Below are positions 52,665 through 58,770 of a stretch of 64,000 nt of DNA, one piece after another; position 1 is the first letter of the stretch, and every line of letters starts with the position of its first letter. A model generated the notes under the pieces. It was given only the letters and a program-made list of their open reading frames with translations, searched no databases and was not told where the DNA came from. Source of the DNA: Blattabacterium cuenoti (GTDB lineage: Bacteria; Bacteroidota; Bacteroidia; Flavobacteriales; Blattabacteriaceae). The DNA lies in assembly GCF_014251555.1 (NCBI RefSeq), contig NZ_CP059190.1:44701-108700 (forward strand), given 5' to 3'. Made by a program: the position numbers and the translations under genes.

Positions 52665-54350
52665 ATGGAAAAAAGAATTAACGATTTTAGCAAAAAGATA
52701 ACAAAAGAGCCTAATTTACCAGCAGCACATGCTATGTTGTATGCTACAGGAATGAAAGAATCCGATTTTTGTAAAGCTCAGATAGGAATAGTTAGCAATT
52801 GGTACGAGGGAAATCCTTGCAATATGCATTTGGATAAATTAGCAAAAAAAATAAAATCATCGGTTATAACTAAAGATTTAGTAGGATTTCAATTTACTAC
52901 TATTGGAGTGAGTGATGGAATTACTATGGGGACTTCAGGAATGAGATACTCTTTACCTTCTAGAGAATTAATAGCGGATAGCATAGAAACAGTAGTTGAT
53001 TCACACCATTATGATGGAATAATTGCTATTCCCGGATGCGATAAAAATATGCCGGGAGTTATGATTGCTTTACTTAGATTGAATCGTCCATCTATCATAG
53101 TGTATGGAGGAAGTATTTCTTCAGGTTATTATAATGGTCAAAAATTAGATATAGTTTCTTCTTTTGAAGCTCTAGGAAAAAAAAATACTTGCAAAATTTC
53201 AGAAACAGAGTACAAAAATATTGTCAAAAATTCTTGTCCAGGGCCAGGAGCTTGTGGAGGGATGTATACTGCAAATACCATGGCTTCTGCTTTAGAAGCT
53301 ATGGGAATGATGCTTCCTTATTCTTCTTCATCTCCTTCAACAAGTGAAAATAAACAAATAGAGTGTGAAGAAGTTTCTACATACATTCAAAAACTTCTGG
53401 AAAGAAGGATCAAACCGAAAGATATAGTCACAAAGTCTTCTATAGAAAATGGAGTAAAATTAGCTATGTGTTTAGGAGGTTCTACCAATTTGGTGTTACA
53501 CTTTTTAGCTATTGCCAAATCTGCAAATATTGATTTTTCTTTAAAAGATTTTCAAAGGATAAGCAATCAAGTTCCTCTTATTGGAAATTTAAAACCAAGT
53601 GGAATTTTCTTAATGGAGGATATTCATATGTATATAGGAGGCATCCCTGTTATTATAAAATATTTATTAAATGAAGGAATATTATCAGGAGATTGTCTAA
53701 CAGTTACTGGAAGAACATTATCTGAAAATATGAAAAATGTTCCTAATATAACTTTTAATCAAAAAATTATTCATTCTTTAGATAAACCTATTAAAAAAAA
53801 CGGACATATCAGAATTTTATATGGGAATCTTTCTCCAGAAGGAGCCATAGCTAAAATAACTGGAAAGGAAGGAACTATTTTTCGTGGGAAAGCTAATGTT
53901 TTTAATTCAGAAGAAGAAGCCAATCAAGCAATTTTAAATAATCAAGTTTTTCCTGGAATTGTAATTGTCATCAGATATGTAGGTCCGAAAGGAGGTCCTG
54001 GAATGCCAGAAATGTTAAAACCAACGTCTTATATTATGGGATCAGGACTAGGAAAAAAAGTAGCTCTTATTACAGATGGAAGATTTTCAGGAGGATCACA
54101 CGGTTTTGTAGTAGGACATATTACTCCAGAAGCACAATCTGGAGGCTTAATAGCTTTGGTTCAAAATGGAGATTTTATTAAAATAGATTCGGAAAATAAT
54201 ACCATTACTCTTGAAGTGGAAAATGATGAAATACAAAGAAGAAAAAAATCATGGATCCCTCCTTCATTGAAAGTCAAAAAAGGATACTTATACAAGTATA
54301 CAAAAATAGTATCTCCAGCTTCTGAAGGGTGCATTACAGATCAATTTTAA
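52665..54350 (+). CDS. ilvD: Dihydroxy-acid dehydratase
   Basis: Third step of valine and isoleucine synthesis. The 561-residue iron-sulfur enzyme has cluster cysteines in EGNPCNMH, PGCDKNMPG and CPGPGACGGMYTANTM, and the C-terminal GRFSGGSHGFVVGHITPEA with the catalytic Ser. Full length. First gene of ilvD-ilvB-ilvN-ilvC-ilvA, preceded by the terminator-like hairpin. ilvB starts 4 bases after the stop. Confidence 0.97.
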   Translation: MEKRINDFSKKITKEPNLPAAHAMLYATGMKESDFCKAQIGIVSNWYEGNPCNMHLDKLAKKIKSSVITKDLVGFQFTTIGVSDGITMGTSGMRYSLPSRELIADSIETVVDSHHYDGIIAIPGCDKNMPGVMIALLRLNRPSIIVYGGSISSGYYNGQKLDIVSSFEALGKKNTCKISETEYKNIVKNSCPGPGACGGMYTANTMASALEAMGMMLPYSSSSPSTSENKQIECEEVSTYIQKLLERRIKPKDIVTKSSIENGVKLAMCLGGSTNLVLHFLAIAKSANIDFSLKDFQRISNQVPLIGNLKPSGIFLMEDIHMYIGGIPVIIKYLLNEGILSGDCLTVTGRTLSENMKNVPNITFNQKIIHSLDKPIKKNGHIRILYGNLSPEGAIAKITGKEGTIFRGKANVFNSEEEANQAILNNQVFPGIVIVIRYVGPKGGPGMPEMLKPTSYIMGSGLGKKVALITDGRFSGGSHGFVVGHITPEAQSGGLIALVQNGDFIKIDSENNTITLEVENDEIQRRKKSWIPPSLKVKKGYLYKYTKIVSPASEGCITDQF

Positions 54351-54354
54351 TTGT

Positions 54355-56049
54355 ATGGAAAAAAAGTTATTCTCCGGTTCAGAAATAGTAATAAAAGCAC
54401 TCTTACATGAAGAGGTAGAATACATATTCGGTTATCCAGGTGGAGCGATTATGCCTATTTATGATTCTTTACACGACTATTTAAATTTAGTTTCGCATAT
54501 TTTGATGCGTCACGAACAAGGATCTATTCATGCAGCACAAGGATATGCTAGAGCAACTGGAAAAATAGGTGTATGTTTCACTACTTCAGGTCCAGGAGCT
54601 ACTAATTTGATTACTGGATTAGCAGATGCCTTGATAGATAGTACTCCTCTTGTTTGTATTACTGGACAAGTATCTTCTCATTTATTGGGAACCGATGCGT
54701 TTCAAGAAACAAATATTATAGATATTTCTATTCCTGTAACTAAATGGAATACTCAAGTATTAAAAGCTCAAGATATTTGTCAATCAATTCAAAAAGGATT
54801 TTTTATAGCTAAAAAAGGAAGACCAGGACCTGTATTGATAGATATCACTAAAGATGCTCAATTTCAAAAAGCTGAATTTCATTATCAACGTTGTAAATAC
54901 ATAAAAAATTTTCATCCATATCCTTGTATAGAGGAAAAAAGAATAATAGAAGCTGCGAATTTAATCAACACAGCTAAAAGACCTTTGATTCTTGTAGGTC
55001 AAGGAGTCATTTTAGCTGAAGCAGAAGAAGAATTTAAAAAATTTGTTGAAAAAACAGGAATTCCAGTAGCTAGTACTTTATTAGGATTAGGGGCTTTGGA
55101 TAGTGATCACCATCTATATGTAGGAATGTTAGGTATGCATGGAAATTATGCTCCAAATATTTTAACCAATCAATGTGATATTCTTATTGCAATAGGGATG
55201 CGTTTTGATGATCGTGTCACAGGAGATGTCAAAAAATATGCAAAACAAGCTAAAATCATTCATTTAGAAATTGATTCTTCAGAAGTTAATAAGAATATAT
55301 TATGTCATATTCCGATTTTAGGAGATTGCAAATCTTCTTTAAAAAAATTAATGAACTATGTGAATGGATCGACTCATGAAGAATGGATCGAAAAGTTTTG
55401 TAGTCTAAAAGAAAAAGAAAAAAATGTAGTCATACAAGGTGATCTTAACCCAAAAAAAAAAGGAATGACTATGGGTGAGGTAATTAAGTGGATTAATCAA
55501 TATAAACAAAAAAATGCTATTCTTGTAACTGATGTAGGACAACATCAAATGATAGCTTCAAGATATTTCAATTTTACCTACAAAAAAAGTCAAATAACTT
55601 CTGGAGGATTGGGGACAATGGGTTTTGCTTTACCTGCTTCAATAGGAGCTAAATTAGGAGCGAAAAATAGACAAGTTATTTGTATTGTAGGAGACGGAGG
55701 GATTCAAATGACAATACAAGAGATGGGGGCCATTTTACAAAATGATATTCCTGTAAAAATTATATTGCTGAATAATAATTTTTTGGGAATGGTACGTCAA
55801 TGGCAACAACTTTTTTTTGATAAACGTTATTCGTGTACAGAATTAATTAATCCAGATTTCATAAAGTTAGCTAATGCTTATAAAATAAAAGCAAAAAAAG
55901 TAGGCAAAAGAGAAGAATTAAAAGAATCTATAAAAAAAGCATTGAATAATGAAAAAGCTTTTTTGTTAGAAGTTGTAATAGAAAGAGAAGACAATGTTTT
56001 TCCTATGATTCCTGCAGGAGCAGCTGTAGATGAAATTCGTTTAACATAA
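54355..56049 (+). CDS. ilvB: Acetolactate synthase large (catalytic) subunit
   Basis: ThDP enzyme that makes acetolactate or acetohydroxybutyrate. The 564-residue protein has YIFGYPGGAIMPIYD, the catalytic Glu in MRHEQGSIHAAQGYARATG (about 47-65), FAD-binding central domain segments, and the ThDP motif from GDGGIQMTIQEMG to LLNNNFLGMVRQWQ. A run of 10 A lies in frame near 55450. Complete. Confidence 0.96.
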   Translation: MEKKLFSGSEIVIKALLHEEVEYIFGYPGGAIMPIYDSLHDYLNLVSHILMRHEQGSIHAAQGYARATGKIGVCFTTSGPGATNLITGLADALIDSTPLVCITGQVSSHLLGTDAFQETNIIDISIPVTKWNTQVLKAQDICQSIQKGFFIAKKGRPGPVLIDITKDAQFQKAEFHYQRCKYIKNFHPYPCIEEKRIIEAANLINTAKRPLILVGQGVILAEAEEEFKKFVEKTGIPVASTLLGLGALDSDHHLYVGMLGMHGNYAPNILTNQCDILIAIGMRFDDRVTGDVKKYAKQAKIIHLEIDSSEVNKNILCHIPILGDCKSSLKKLMNYVNGSTHEEWIEKFCSLKEKEKNVVIQGDLNPKKKGMTMGEVIKWINQYKQKNAILVTDVGQHQMIASRYFNFTYKKSQITSGGLGTMGFALPASIGAKLGAKNRQVICIVGDGGIQMTIQEMGAILQNDIPVKIILLNNNFLGMVRQWQQLFFDKRYSCTELINPDFIKLANAYKIKAKKVGKREELKESIKKALNNEKAFLLEVVIEREDNVFPMIPAGAAVDEIRLT

Positions 56050-56069
56050 TTAAAAAATATTTATATACT

Positions 56070-56372
56070 ATGAAGCATCAATTCAGAGTAATAATTTTAG
56101 GAGAAAGAGAAACAAGATTATTGAGTAGAATCCTTATTTTATTGAATAGAAGAAATTTGAAAACTAATCATATCAACGTATCTAGTAATGAAACTATTGG
56201 AAATGTTCAATATGTTCTAGATTTAGAATGTCAAGAAGAACAGTTGATTAAAGTTAAAAAATTAATTGAAAAATTAATTGGGATCATTCATGTTTATTCT
56301 TCTAGAATAGAAGAAAAAAATTCTAGAAAAAATTCATGGAAAAAAATAGATTTACCGCTAGCAACATATTAA
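56070..56372 (+). CDS. ilvN: Acetolactate synthase small subunit, ACT domain only, valine-site residues replaced
   Basis: Regulatory subunit that normally activates IlvB and imposes valine feedback. At 100 residues it holds one ACT domain (about 4-80) and lacks the C-terminal domain of flavobacterial homologues near 170 residues. Aligned without gaps to E. coli IlvH (offset 2), the valine-binding residues Asn11, Gly14 and Asn29 correspond to Arg13, Arg16 and Lys31. Mutating those E. coli positions gives valine resistance. The subunit therefore looks unable to bind valine, although it may still activate the enzyme. Position between ilvB and ilvC confirms identity. Confidence 0.88.
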   Translation: MKHQFRVIILGERETRLLSRILILLNRRNLKTNHINVSSNETIGNVQYVLDLECQEEQLIKVKKLIEKLIGIIHVYSSRIEEKNSRKNSWKKIDLPLATY

Positions 56373-56386
56373 ATTAAATAAAAATC

Positions 56387-57439
56387 ATGAAAATTAAATT
56401 TGGATCTGTAGAAGAAACTATTGTAACAAGAGAAGAATTTCCATTATCAAAAGCTAGAGAAATATTAAAAAAAGAAACTATTTCTATACTAGGATATGGT
56501 GTTCAAGGTCCTGGACAATCTCTCAATTTGAAAGACAATGGATTTCAAGTTATTGTAGGACAAAGAAAAAATTCTATTTCTTGGGAAAAAGCACTAAAAG
56601 ATGGATGGATAGAAGGAAAAGATCTTTTTTCTTTAGAAGAAGCTTCTGAAAAAGGGACTATACTCATGTATCTATTATCAGATGCAGGTCAAATCTCTTT
56701 TTGGCCAACTCTTTCTAGATATCTCACTAAAGGAAAATCTTTATATTTTTCGCATGGATTTGGATTAACTTTTTGTGAAAAAACAAAAATATATCCATCT
56801 AAAGATATAGATATTTTTTTAGTAGCTCCTAAAGGATCAGGAACTAGTTTAAGAAGACTTTTTTTACAAGGAAAAGGAATTAATTCTAGTTATGCTATTT
56901 ATCAAGATTTTAGTGGTAAAAGTTTAGAAAAAGCTTTATCCATTGGGATAGGAATAGGATCTGGATATTTGTTTGAAACCAGTTTTAAAAATGAAGTATA
57001 CTCTGATTTAGTGGGAGAAAGAGGGACTTTAATGGGAGCTATACAAGGAATTTTTTCTGCACAATATCAAATGTTAAGAGAAAAAGGTCATTCCCCTTCA
57101 GAATCTTTTAACGAAACTGTAGAAGAACTAACTCAAAGTCTAATGCCATTAGTAGCGGAAAAAGGAATGGATTGGATGTATGATAATTGTTCTACAACGG
57201 CACAAAGAGGAGCTTTAGATTGGTGGAAAAAATTTAGAGATGTTACATACCCAATATTTAAAGAACTATATCATGAAGTTTCTTCTGGAAATGAGGCTGA
57301 AAGAATTATTAAAGCTAATAGTGATATAGATTACAGAATAAAGTTAAAAAAAGAGTTGCAAGATCTTAAAAAAAGTGAATTATGGGAAGTAGGATCAATT
57401 ATTCGTGATCTTAGACCAGAGAATAAACATAAAAAATAG
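56387..57439 (+). CDS. ilvC: Ketol-acid reductoisomerase, class I length
   Basis: Isomerises and reduces acetolactate using NAD(P)H. The 350-residue protein has the Rossmann start ILGYGVQGPGQSLNLKDNG with the cofactor loop VGQRK, then FLVAPKGSGTSLRR. The Mg-binding acidic helices lie in SDLVGERGTLMGAIQG and the following C-terminal knotted domain. It is the short form, not the about 490-residue enterobacterial class II form. Confidence 0.94.
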   Translation: MKIKFGSVEETIVTREEFPLSKAREILKKETISILGYGVQGPGQSLNLKDNGFQVIVGQRKNSISWEKALKDGWIEGKDLFSLEEASEKGTILMYLLSDAGQISFWPTLSRYLTKGKSLYFSHGFGLTFCEKTKIYPSKDIDIFLVAPKGSGTSLRRLFLQGKGINSSYAIYQDFSGKSLEKALSIGIGIGSGYLFETSFKNEVYSDLVGERGTLMGAIQGIFSAQYQMLREKGHSPSESFNETVEELTQSLMPLVAEKGMDWMYDNCSTTAQRGALDWWKKFRDVTYPIFKELYHEVSSGNEAERIIKANSDIDYRIKLKKELQDLKKSELWEVGSIIRDLRPENKHKK

Positions 57440-57504
57440 TTGGTTTTTTAAATTAACTAATCAAAAATTACACTTTTTATTATTTTTAAAGGATTTTTAA
57501 AAGA

Positions 57505-58770
57505 TTGAAAAATAGATTAAAAGGTTACTTTCCTTCTTATAAAGAAGTAATCAGAGCTAAAAATGTATTAAAAGATATCATTTATGAAACTCCGTTACAG
57601 AGAAATTCTCTTTTATCAGAAAAATATAAAGCTAATGTTTTTTTAAAAAGAGAAGATTTACAAATTATACGTTCATATAAAATTAGAGGAGCCTATAACA
57701 AAATAAAAAGTCTCTCTCACACAGAGTTAAAAAAAGGAATAATGTGCGCTAGTGCAGGAAATCATGCACAAGGTGTAGCCTATTCTTGTCATATATTAAA
57801 GATACCAGGAAAAATTTATATGCCTAGTACTACCCCCAAACAAAAAATAGAAAGAGTAAAAATGTTTGGAAAAGAATATATTGAGATTATTTTGATTGGA
57901 GATACTTTTGATGCGGTTAGTTATGAAGCGATGAAGGATTGCAAAAAGAATGCAAAAATTTTTATTCATCCTTTTGATGATATTAAAATTATTGAAGGAC
58001 AAGCTACTGTGGGATTAGAGATTTTACAACAATCCATTTCAAATATAGATTATGTTTTTATTCCTATTGGAGGAGGAGGTTTAGCTTCTGGTGTAGGAAG
58101 TCATTTTAAAGAATTTAGTCCAAAAACTAAAATTATAGGAGTAGAACCTCAAGGAGCTCCATCTATGAGTTTTTCTTTAAAAAAAGGAAAAGTCGTAGAG
58201 TTAGAAACAATAGATAGATTTATTGATGGAGCATCAGTAAAAAAAGTAGGAGAATTAAATTTTAATATATGTAATCAAATATTATATGATATCAAAACAG
58301 TTCCAGAAGGAAAAGTTTGTACAACTATTCTAGATTTATATAATTTAGAAGCCATTGTCGCAGAACCAGCTGGAGCTCTTTCAATAGCAGCTTTAGATTT
58401 TTATTCTGAAAAAATCAAAGGAAAAACTATTGTTTGTATTTTAAGTGGGGGGAATAATGATATTACTAGAACGGAAGAAATACGAGAAAGATCTCTTTTG
58501 TATGAAGAGAGAAAGCATTATTTTATAGTTAAATTTCCACAAAGAGCTGGAGCTTTAAAAGAATTTGTTAATAATATTTTAGGCCCAAAAGACGATATTG
58601 CCTATTTCGAATATTCCAAAAAAACTTCCAAAGAAGAAGGACCTGCTGTAATAGGAATAGAATTATCTGATAAAAATGAGTTTTCAGCATTATTAGGAAG
58701 AATGAAAAGGTATAAAGTTCATTTTCAATATTTAAATCAGAATCCTGATTTATTTCGTGTTCTGATATAA
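57505..58770 (+). CDS. ilvA: Threonine dehydratase (biosynthetic, with regulatory domain)
   Basis: PLP enzyme that makes 2-oxobutyrate for isoleucine. The 421-residue protein has the Schiff-base lysine in RSYKIRGAYNK, SAGNHAQGVAYSC, the PLP phosphate loop IPIGGGGLASG, and one ACT-like C-terminal domain (about 335-421, FPQRAGALKEFV). The regulatory domain is kept, in contrast to the reduced IlvN. The only start in frame is TTG 57505; a stop lies 18 bases upstream and no ATG precedes the core. Confidence 0.93.
   Translation: MKNRLKGYFPSYKEVIRAKNVLKDIIYETPLQRNSLLSEKYKANVFLKREDLQIIRSYKIRGAYNKIKSLSHTELKKGIMCASAGNHAQGVAYSCHILKIPGKIYMPSTTPKQKIERVKMFGKEYIEIILIGDTFDAVSYEAMKDCKKNAKIFIHPFDDIKIIEGQATVGLEILQQSISNIDYVFIPIGGGGLASGVGSHFKEFSPKTKIIGVEPQGAPSMSFSLKKGKVVELETIDRFIDGASVKKVGELNFNICNQILYDIKTVPEGKVCTTILDLYNLEAIVAEPAGALSIAALDFYSEKIKGKTIVCILSGGNNDITRTEEIRERSLLYEERKHYFIVKFPQRAGALKEFVNNILGPKDDIAYFEYSKKTSKEEGPAVIGIELSDKNEFSALLGRMKRYKVHFQYLNQNPDLFRVLI

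What the first reader, a model, noticed from the sequence alone, without database searches (positions are those of the whole stretch)
56106..56162. IlvN has basic residues at all three valine-binding positions
With an ungapped alignment to E. coli IlvH, Asn11, Gly14 and Asn29 become Arg13, Arg16 and Lys31, and the C-terminal regulatory domain is gone. Changes at these positions in E. coli cause valine resistance. The pattern predicts acetolactate synthase freed from end-product inhibition, which suits an organism that overproduces branched-chain amino acids for its host.
Basis: partly seen in the sequence, partly recalled or inferred. Interest (0 to 1): 0.72.

Follow-up and report, generated by a model that had tools for sequence, protein, structure and literature searches.

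The report
Cockroach symbiont enzyme without valine brake
In the cockroach symbiont Blattabacterium, the small helper protein of the enzyme that starts branched-chain amino acid synthesis carries bulky charged residues where its relatives bind valine, so the enzyme would likely keep running when valine is plentiful, as expected of a bacterium thought to feed these nutrients to its host.

Summary
The residues are as described. IlvN (56070-56372, 100 aa) has Arg13, Arg16 and Lys31 at E. coli IlvH positions Asn11, Gly14 and Asn29; sequence, profile and structural alignments agree. Two corrections. (1) 'Basic at all three' is not the genus rule: in 44 Blattabacterium genomes with ilvN, position 14 is Arg in 41 and position 29 Lys in 41, but position 11 is basic in only 24, one clade. 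(2) The missing C-terminal domain is not diagnostic: valine-sensitive E. coli IlvN and five genomes of another flavobacterial family lack it too, although truncation lowers sensitivity in Corynebacterium. In 117 IlvN sequences of other Bacteroidota, Gly14 is kept in 116 and Asn29 in 110. Gly14 is also replaced by Arg in Walczuchella and a Geopemphigus-aphid symbiont, and by Val in 37 of 54 Karelsulcia-like sequences. Arg16 and Lys31 are among the slower sites, so they look kept rather than drifting. Best reading: an activator-only small subunit, predicted to have lost valine inhibition, working like IlvM of E. coli AHAS II but descended from flavobacterial IlvN. It is untested by assay; one open-access full-text search found no paper naming both Blattabacterium and ilvN.

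The parts
56070..56372 (+). ilvN: ACT-domain-only small subunit of acetolactate (acetohydroxyacid) synthase, 100 aa
   Evidence: TIGR00119 22.6 bits, below cut-off 56.9; predicted ACT fold, mean pLDDT 82.6; profile match to flavobacterial IlvN, 98.3%
56106..56108 (+). Arg13 (AGA), IlvH Asn11; Lys or Arg in 24 of 44 genomes, one clade
56115..56117 (+). Arg16 (AGA), IlvH Gly14; Arg in 41 of 44 genomes
56160..56162 (+). Lys31 (AAA), IlvH Asn29; Lys in 41 of 44 genomes
56280..56282 (+). Gly71 (GGG), IlvH Asp69 column: Asp/Glu in 116 of 117 others, in 0 of 44 Blattabacterium (Gly in 43)
54355..56049 (+). ilvB: catalytic subunit, 564 aa, over its family cut-off (TIGR00118 702.6 bits, cut-off 538.35)
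52665..54350 (+). ilvD (dihydroxyacid dehydratase), same gene row
   Evidence: ORF; name recalled from sequence and gene order, no family search run on it
56387..57439 (+). ilvC (ketol-acid reductoisomerase), same gene row
   Evidence: ORF; name recalled from sequence and gene order, no family search run on it
57505..58770 (+). ilvA (threonine ammonia-lyase) that keeps a recognisable regulatory domain
   Evidence: PF00585 71.1 bits, cut-off 27; TIGR02079 672.4 bits, cut-off 440.55

Best explanation
The gene at 56070-56372 encodes an ACT-domain-only small subunit of acetolactate synthase whose three valine-site residues are replaced (Asn to Arg, Gly to Arg, Asn to Lys), so it likely still activates IlvB but is predicted no longer to let valine shut the enzyme off. 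Shown: the replacements, their near-fixation at positions 14 and 29 in the genus, ilvB over its family cut-off beside it, and retention of the other helix-1 core residues. Inferred: Arg16 in the beta1-alpha1 loop and Lys31 at the start of beta2 would fill or recharge the dimer-interface pocket where valine sits in E. coli small subunits; the subunit would persist because the catalytic subunit needs it for full activity. Inferred: carbon then flows on to valine, leucine and isoleucine regardless of valine level, which would serve export to the host.
For: Register from sequence, profile and structure. Gly14 116/117 and Asn29 110/117 in other Bacteroidota against 2/44 and 0/44 here. The solved AHAS small subunits whose alignments one search prints (Arabidopsis repeats 1 and 2, Thermotoga, Nitrosomonas), and E. 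coli IlvH and IlvN, all keep Gly14 and Asn29. IlvM has F/E/H at the three positions; AHAS II is valine-insensitive while AHAS I, a single-ACT enzyme, is fully inhibited (PMC5727371, passages and section 3.3). The same section says changing the conserved glycine makes AHAS III insensitive (its alignment number G36; that this is G14 is my reading). Changes starting at G14 have the greatest effect (PMC13158618, section 3.3). Asn11 and Asn29 are related to valine binding (PMC11893703, passage). ilvN is found beside ilvB in all 44 genus genomes that have ilvB, of 49 searched. Arg16 and Lys31 rank 18th and 16th slowest of 100 sites. Gly14 is Val in 37 of 54 Karelsulcia-like and Arg in 14 of 17 other symbiont-like sequences. 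ilvN dN/dS in 13 close pairs is 0.08-0.96, all below 1.
Against: No biochemical test. Two Blattabacterium genomes (G039, G010) and 17 of 54 Karelsulcia-like sequences keep Gly14. Two hydrophobic positions that PMC11893703 also ties to valine binding stay: Leu16 in 43 of 44 and Val35 in 36 of 44. ilvN dN/dS exceeds that of ilvB in 10 of 12 pairs; ilvN is frameshifted in G009 and near its start in G016, and not found in G066, which keeps ilvB, ilvC and ilvD: relaxed constraint fits too. C. glutamicum has Asp at position 11 and is valine-inhibited, so position 11 alone says little. Ten of 41 other conserved positions also changed class. That this IlvN activates this IlvB is inferred from other species.
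Confidence: 0.7

Rival explanations
1. The small subunit is simply decaying: AT-rich drift and weak selection in a small asexual population eroded the valine site, with no selection for overproduction, and the gene is on its way out. The enzyme would be valine-insensitive by neglect, perhaps less active.
For: Gly GGA to Arg AGA and Asn AAT to Lys AAA are single changes, the first AT-ward (codons). ilvN dN/dS exceeds that of ilvB in 10 of 12 pairs. Frameshifted in G009 and near the start in G016, altered tail in G017, G002, G016; not found in G066.
Against: Arg16 and Lys31 are the same residue in 41 of 44 genomes each and slow, not scattered; position 13 is mixed by contrast (rank 90 of 100 by share, but only mid-range, 44th, by rate). 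The other helix-1 core residues stay. The fixed Asp/Glu to Gly at site 71 runs against AT bias (direction inferred from codons).
Confidence: 0.2
2. Feedback persists through a changed ligand: the basic pocket binds an anionic metabolite (for example a 2-keto acid or a phosphate compound) or another amino acid instead of valine.
For: Positive residues at 14 and 29 are kept over wide divergence in the genus, as a ligand site would be; fold and pocket position look intact in the model.
Against: No partner known; related symbiont-like sequences put Val, Ile or Gly at 14 and Asp, Thr, Ile, Ser, Leu, Phe and others at 29, so no single new specificity is shared.
Confidence: 0.08
3. Misalignment: the three basic residues do not lie at the valine site.
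For: Identity to IlvH is only 19%.
Against: The same register from MAFFT, hhalign and a structural alignment with a constant offset of 2 over 78 residues; the structure is a prediction.
Confidence: 0.02

Closest known systems
Flavobacterial IlvN (AHAS III-like small subunit, TIGR00119)
   Same: Place beside ilvB, ACT domain, profile match 98.3%
   Different: No C-terminal domain; Gly14 and Asn29 (and here Asn11) replaced
IlvM, small subunit of E. coli AHAS II (valine-insensitive per PMC5727371)
   Same: Short, ACT only, none of the three valine-site residues (F/E/H)
   Different: Not a close relative: profile probability 4.1%; different residues
IlvN, small subunit of E. coli AHAS I
   Same: 96 aa, single ACT domain; best Foldseek hit is its valine-bound form 5ypp
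   Different: Keeps N/G/N and is fully valine-inhibited (PMC5727371), so shortness alone is not release
Engineered feedback-resistant IlvN of C. glutamicum (G20D/I21D/I22F; C-terminal truncation by 53 aa)
   Same: Change at the matching glycine, and a lost C-terminal part that kept 90.8% activity with 0.590 g/L valine (PMC8709942 passages; G20/G14 match per PMC13158618)
   Different: Laboratory mutants; acidic or aromatic residues
Buchnera prephenate dehydratase with altered allosteric site
   Same: Nutritional symbiont whose feedback site may be weakened by point mutations (Jimenez 2000 as cited in PMC5054487, passage)
   Different: Other enzyme, pathway and bacterial phylum

Membership tests
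AHAS small subunit IlvN/IlvH (TIGR00119) | Curated model score | tested here: not met
   22.6 bits against cut-off 56.9, E 8.1e-05; the 158-position model spans both domains and this protein matches positions 7-77 only
AHAS small subunit IlvN/IlvH (TIGR00119) | Directly beside ilvB in an ilv gene row | tested here: met
   ilvD-ilvB-ilvN-ilvC-ilvA order seen in flavobacterial loci such as L144
AHAS small subunit IlvN/IlvH (TIGR00119) | Profile-level homology to flavobacterial IlvN and E. coli IlvH | tested here: met
   98.3% and 85.6%
AHAS small subunit IlvN/IlvH (TIGR00119) | ACT fold like solved AHAS small subunits | tested here: met
AHAS small subunit IlvN/IlvH (TIGR00119) | C-terminal domain of the long form | tested here: not met
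   100 aa only; AHAS I and II small subunits lack it too (PMC5727371)
AHAS small subunit IlvN/IlvH (TIGR00119) | Valine-site residues N11, G14, N29 | tested here: not met
   R/R/K
AHAS small subunit IlvN/IlvH (TIGR00119) | Activates its catalytic subunit | not testable with these tools
   needs an assay
IlvM (AHAS II small subunit) | Sequence relation to E. coli IlvM above that to IlvH | tested here: not met
   4.1% against 85.6%
IlvM (AHAS II small subunit) | Valine insensitivity | not testable with these tools
   predicted only

The most novel reading that the evidence does not exclude
Across a whole lineage of insect nutritional symbionts (Blattabacterium, Walczuchella, Karelsulcia, the Geopemphigus symbiont) the valine sensor of acetolactate synthase has been converted, by repeated loss of one glycine, into a permanently-on activator; in Blattabacterium the conserved Arg16 and Lys31 act as a built-in ligand that locks the subunit in its activating state.
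Probability: 0.2. Interest if true: 0.75.

Novelty: new variant of a known kind. Interest (0 to 1): 0.5.

Why it matters
How nutritional symbionts overproduce amino acids that normally shut down their own synthesis is an old question. A single glycine, kept in 116 of 117 IlvN of other Bacteroidota but lost in 42 of 44 Blattabacterium and, to various residues, in related symbionts, gives a simple, assayable candidate: one enzyme, one inhibitor, one residue to test.

Tried and rejected
Rejected as proof: that C-terminal loss shows deregulation. The AHAS I small subunit is as short and is valine-sensitive (PMC5727371); five genomes of another flavobacterial family (G092, G099, G133, G141, G160) have a 93-aa IlvN with D/G/S at the three sites. 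Against this rejection: in C. glutamicum a 53-aa truncation does lower valine sensitivity (PMC8709942). Rejected: that LeuA lost its regulatory domain as a symbiont trait. LeuA here lacks PF08502, but no PF08502 match was found in the free-living-sized genomes G117, G092, G149 either. Rejected: the weak Pfam TcdB_N match (20.8 bits, cut-off 27) as chance. A sequence search of the PDB with the single protein gave only one weak unrelated hit.

Unresolved: whether Arg14 arose once. The IlvB tree puts Karelsulcia (long branch) inside Blattabacterium beside G039/G010 and does not resolve the family, so one gain with reversals and several gains fit alike. The Fisher test on pocket positions (3 of 3 lost against 10 of 41 elsewhere, p 0.022; wider pocket 4 of 5 against 9 of 39, p 0.022) is post hoc and columns are not independent: weak support only. 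G051 and G052 keep ilvB, ilvC, ilvD and gave no ilvN match, but their contigs end within about 160 bases of ilvB, so absence is not shown.

Papers: PMC2768785 and PMC3287516 (main text searched for terms) hold none of valine, ilv, branched, feedback; PMC2780778 is not held. 'Blattabacterium + ilvN' gave 0 papers; 'Blattabacterium + acetolactate synthase' 1, not about regulation; 'Blattabacterium + feedback' 30, of which 20 were listed, and I saw passages of two. Broader searches for symbiont feedback were seen as listings only, apart from papers named here; PMC7470985 (Bacteroides) says nothing on ilvN.

The 41 were found with TIGR00119, which favours typical IlvN. My scripts call them free-living by kinship, not by checked lifestyle. 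G015's hit was dropped as spurious (25% identity, elsewhere in the genome, no ilvB, ilvC or ilvD). G009 and G016 were left out of the rate estimate. One search listed 120 of 130 proteins and cannot return proteins outside 0.55-1.75 times the query length; P0065 (truncated) was left out, and its groups were sorted by name and likeness, most rows outside Blattabacterium and Karelsulcia being unnamed.

Full report
What is there. Genes ilvD, ilvB, ilvN, ilvC, ilvA follow on the plus strand at 52665-58770. IlvN is 100 aa, single copy, and so diverged that it falls below the curated cut-offs of Pfam ACT_5 (17.5 of 27 bits) and TIGR00119 (22.6 of 56.9). Profile comparison ties it to flavobacterial IlvN (98.3%) and E. 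coli IlvH (85.6%), not IlvM (4.1%). [quoted passage not shown] the best Foldseek hit is 'IlvN.Val', 5ypp, and IlvH 2f1f_B aligns over 78 residues at a constant offset of 2, though other ACT-like proteins score as well. Residues 13 and 16 thus sit in or at the end of the loop before helix 1 (17-27) and residue 31 at the start of strand 2 (31-40).

The three positions. In the 44 Blattabacterium genomes that hold ilvN beside ilvB, of 49 searched, position 11 (IlvH numbering) is K20 N16 R4 D4, position 14 R41 G2 K1, position 29 K41 R1 Q1 D1; in 117 sequences of other Bacteroidota they are N109, G116 and N110, and in the 76 reached through ilvB N76, G76, N75. On the IlvB tree the 24 genomes with a basic residue at position 11 form one clade (support 90/86, below the starred level), the window's four-genome subclade having Arg. 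Arg16 and Lys31 rank 18th and 16th slowest of 100 sites in 42 genomes, residue 13 44th.

Elsewhere in the family. Gly14 is Arg in 14 of 17 other symbiont-like sequences (named among them: Walczuchella, Geopemphigus symbiont, 'Flavobacteriales bacterium Tduv'; most unnamed), Val in 37 and Gly in 17 of 54 Karelsulcia-like ones. The 119 sequences counted there are 74-109 aa (the search cannot list much longer proteins), and the 48 loci read directly are 74-113 aa apart from the broken G009 piece: no C-terminal domain in any. Five Blattabacterium genomes (G001, G015, G041, G043, G047) gave no ilvB, ilvN or ilvC, with an ilvD remnant in one, G047.

Why release from valine is the likely consequence. 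Literature seen: AHAS I and III small subunits keep a conserved glycine, AHAS II does not; changing it in AHAS III removes valine sensitivity; AHAS I, with one ACT domain, is fully valine-inhibited (PMC5727371, section 3.3 and passages; I take its 'G36' as G14). The residues starting at G14 have the greatest effect, and the subunit cannot simply be removed because it affects the catalytic subunit (PMC13158618, section 3.3). In that paper the triple change at and after the glycine kept only 25% of basal activity, and the glycine-only variant could not be obtained, so glycine loss can cost activity. Asn11 and Asn29 are related to valine binding, but C. glutamicum has Asp at position 11 (PMC11893703, passage). 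In one search, E. coli IlvN has N/G/N, IlvM F/E/H. Solved small subunits from Arabidopsis, Thermotoga and Nitrosomonas keep Gly14 and Asn29 (alignments). Hence Arg at 14 with Lys at 29 is predicted to abolish valine binding. Leu16 and Val35, also tied to valine binding, are kept in 43 and 36 of 44, so the pocket is altered rather than erased. It remains a prediction.

Drift or purpose. ilvN is under purifying selection in 13 close pairs (dN/dS 0.08-0.96) but weaker than ilvB (0.08-0.24 in 12 pairs; higher in ilvN in 10 of 12). Glu10, Arg18 and Lys66, conserved in other Bacteroidota, are kept in 39-41 of 44, while Gly14 and Asn29 are kept in 2 and 0; ten other conserved positions changed class too. 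A-run frameshifts break ilvN in G009 and near its start in G016. I read this as a retained activator freed of its sensor role, with loss as the end point in some lineages; drift cannot be excluded as the cause of the first step.

Novelty. Relaxed feedback in a nutritional symbiont has a precedent in Buchnera prephenate dehydratase, while Buchnera TrpE keeps its site (PMC5054487, passages). I found no printed report for IlvN in Blattabacterium in the searches named; most subscription journals are not covered.

Noticed in passing
L111 (G066), ilvB then ilvC: A reduced symbiont genome keeps ilvB, ilvC, ilvD with no ilvN found; its IlvB branch is very long (1.53). Catalytic subunit perhaps working alone.
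   Followed up: partly
L152 (G083:C23:497371-497832): A second IlvN in a genome with a normal IlvN has Arg14, Asp11, Gln29 and follows what looks like an alcohol dehydrogenase gene rather than ilvB.
   Followed up: no
L143-L147: Five genomes of another flavobacterial family have a 93-aa IlvN without C-terminal domain and with D/G/S at the three sites.
   Followed up: partly
window 56280-56282: Asp/Glu of IlvH position 69, near-invariant in other Bacteroidota (116 of 117), is Gly in 43 of 44 Blattabacterium; role unknown.
   Followed up: no
L101 (G009), L083 (G016), L078 (G017), L084 (G002): Frameshifts in A-runs break ilvN in G009 and near its start in G016; three related genomes (G017, G002, G016) share a frame-shifted C-terminal tail.
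   Followed up: partly
P0008: In strain Bge one source names this gene only as hypothetical protein BLBBGE_555.
   Followed up: no
G000:C1:586424-587563: LeuA gives no match to the LeuA_dimer regulatory domain, as in several other flavobacteria, so this loss may be older than the symbiosis.
   Followed up: partly
L104 (G010): ilvB is broken by stops and ilvD matches in two pieces, while ilvN and ilvC are open: a pathway in decay.
   Followed up: partly
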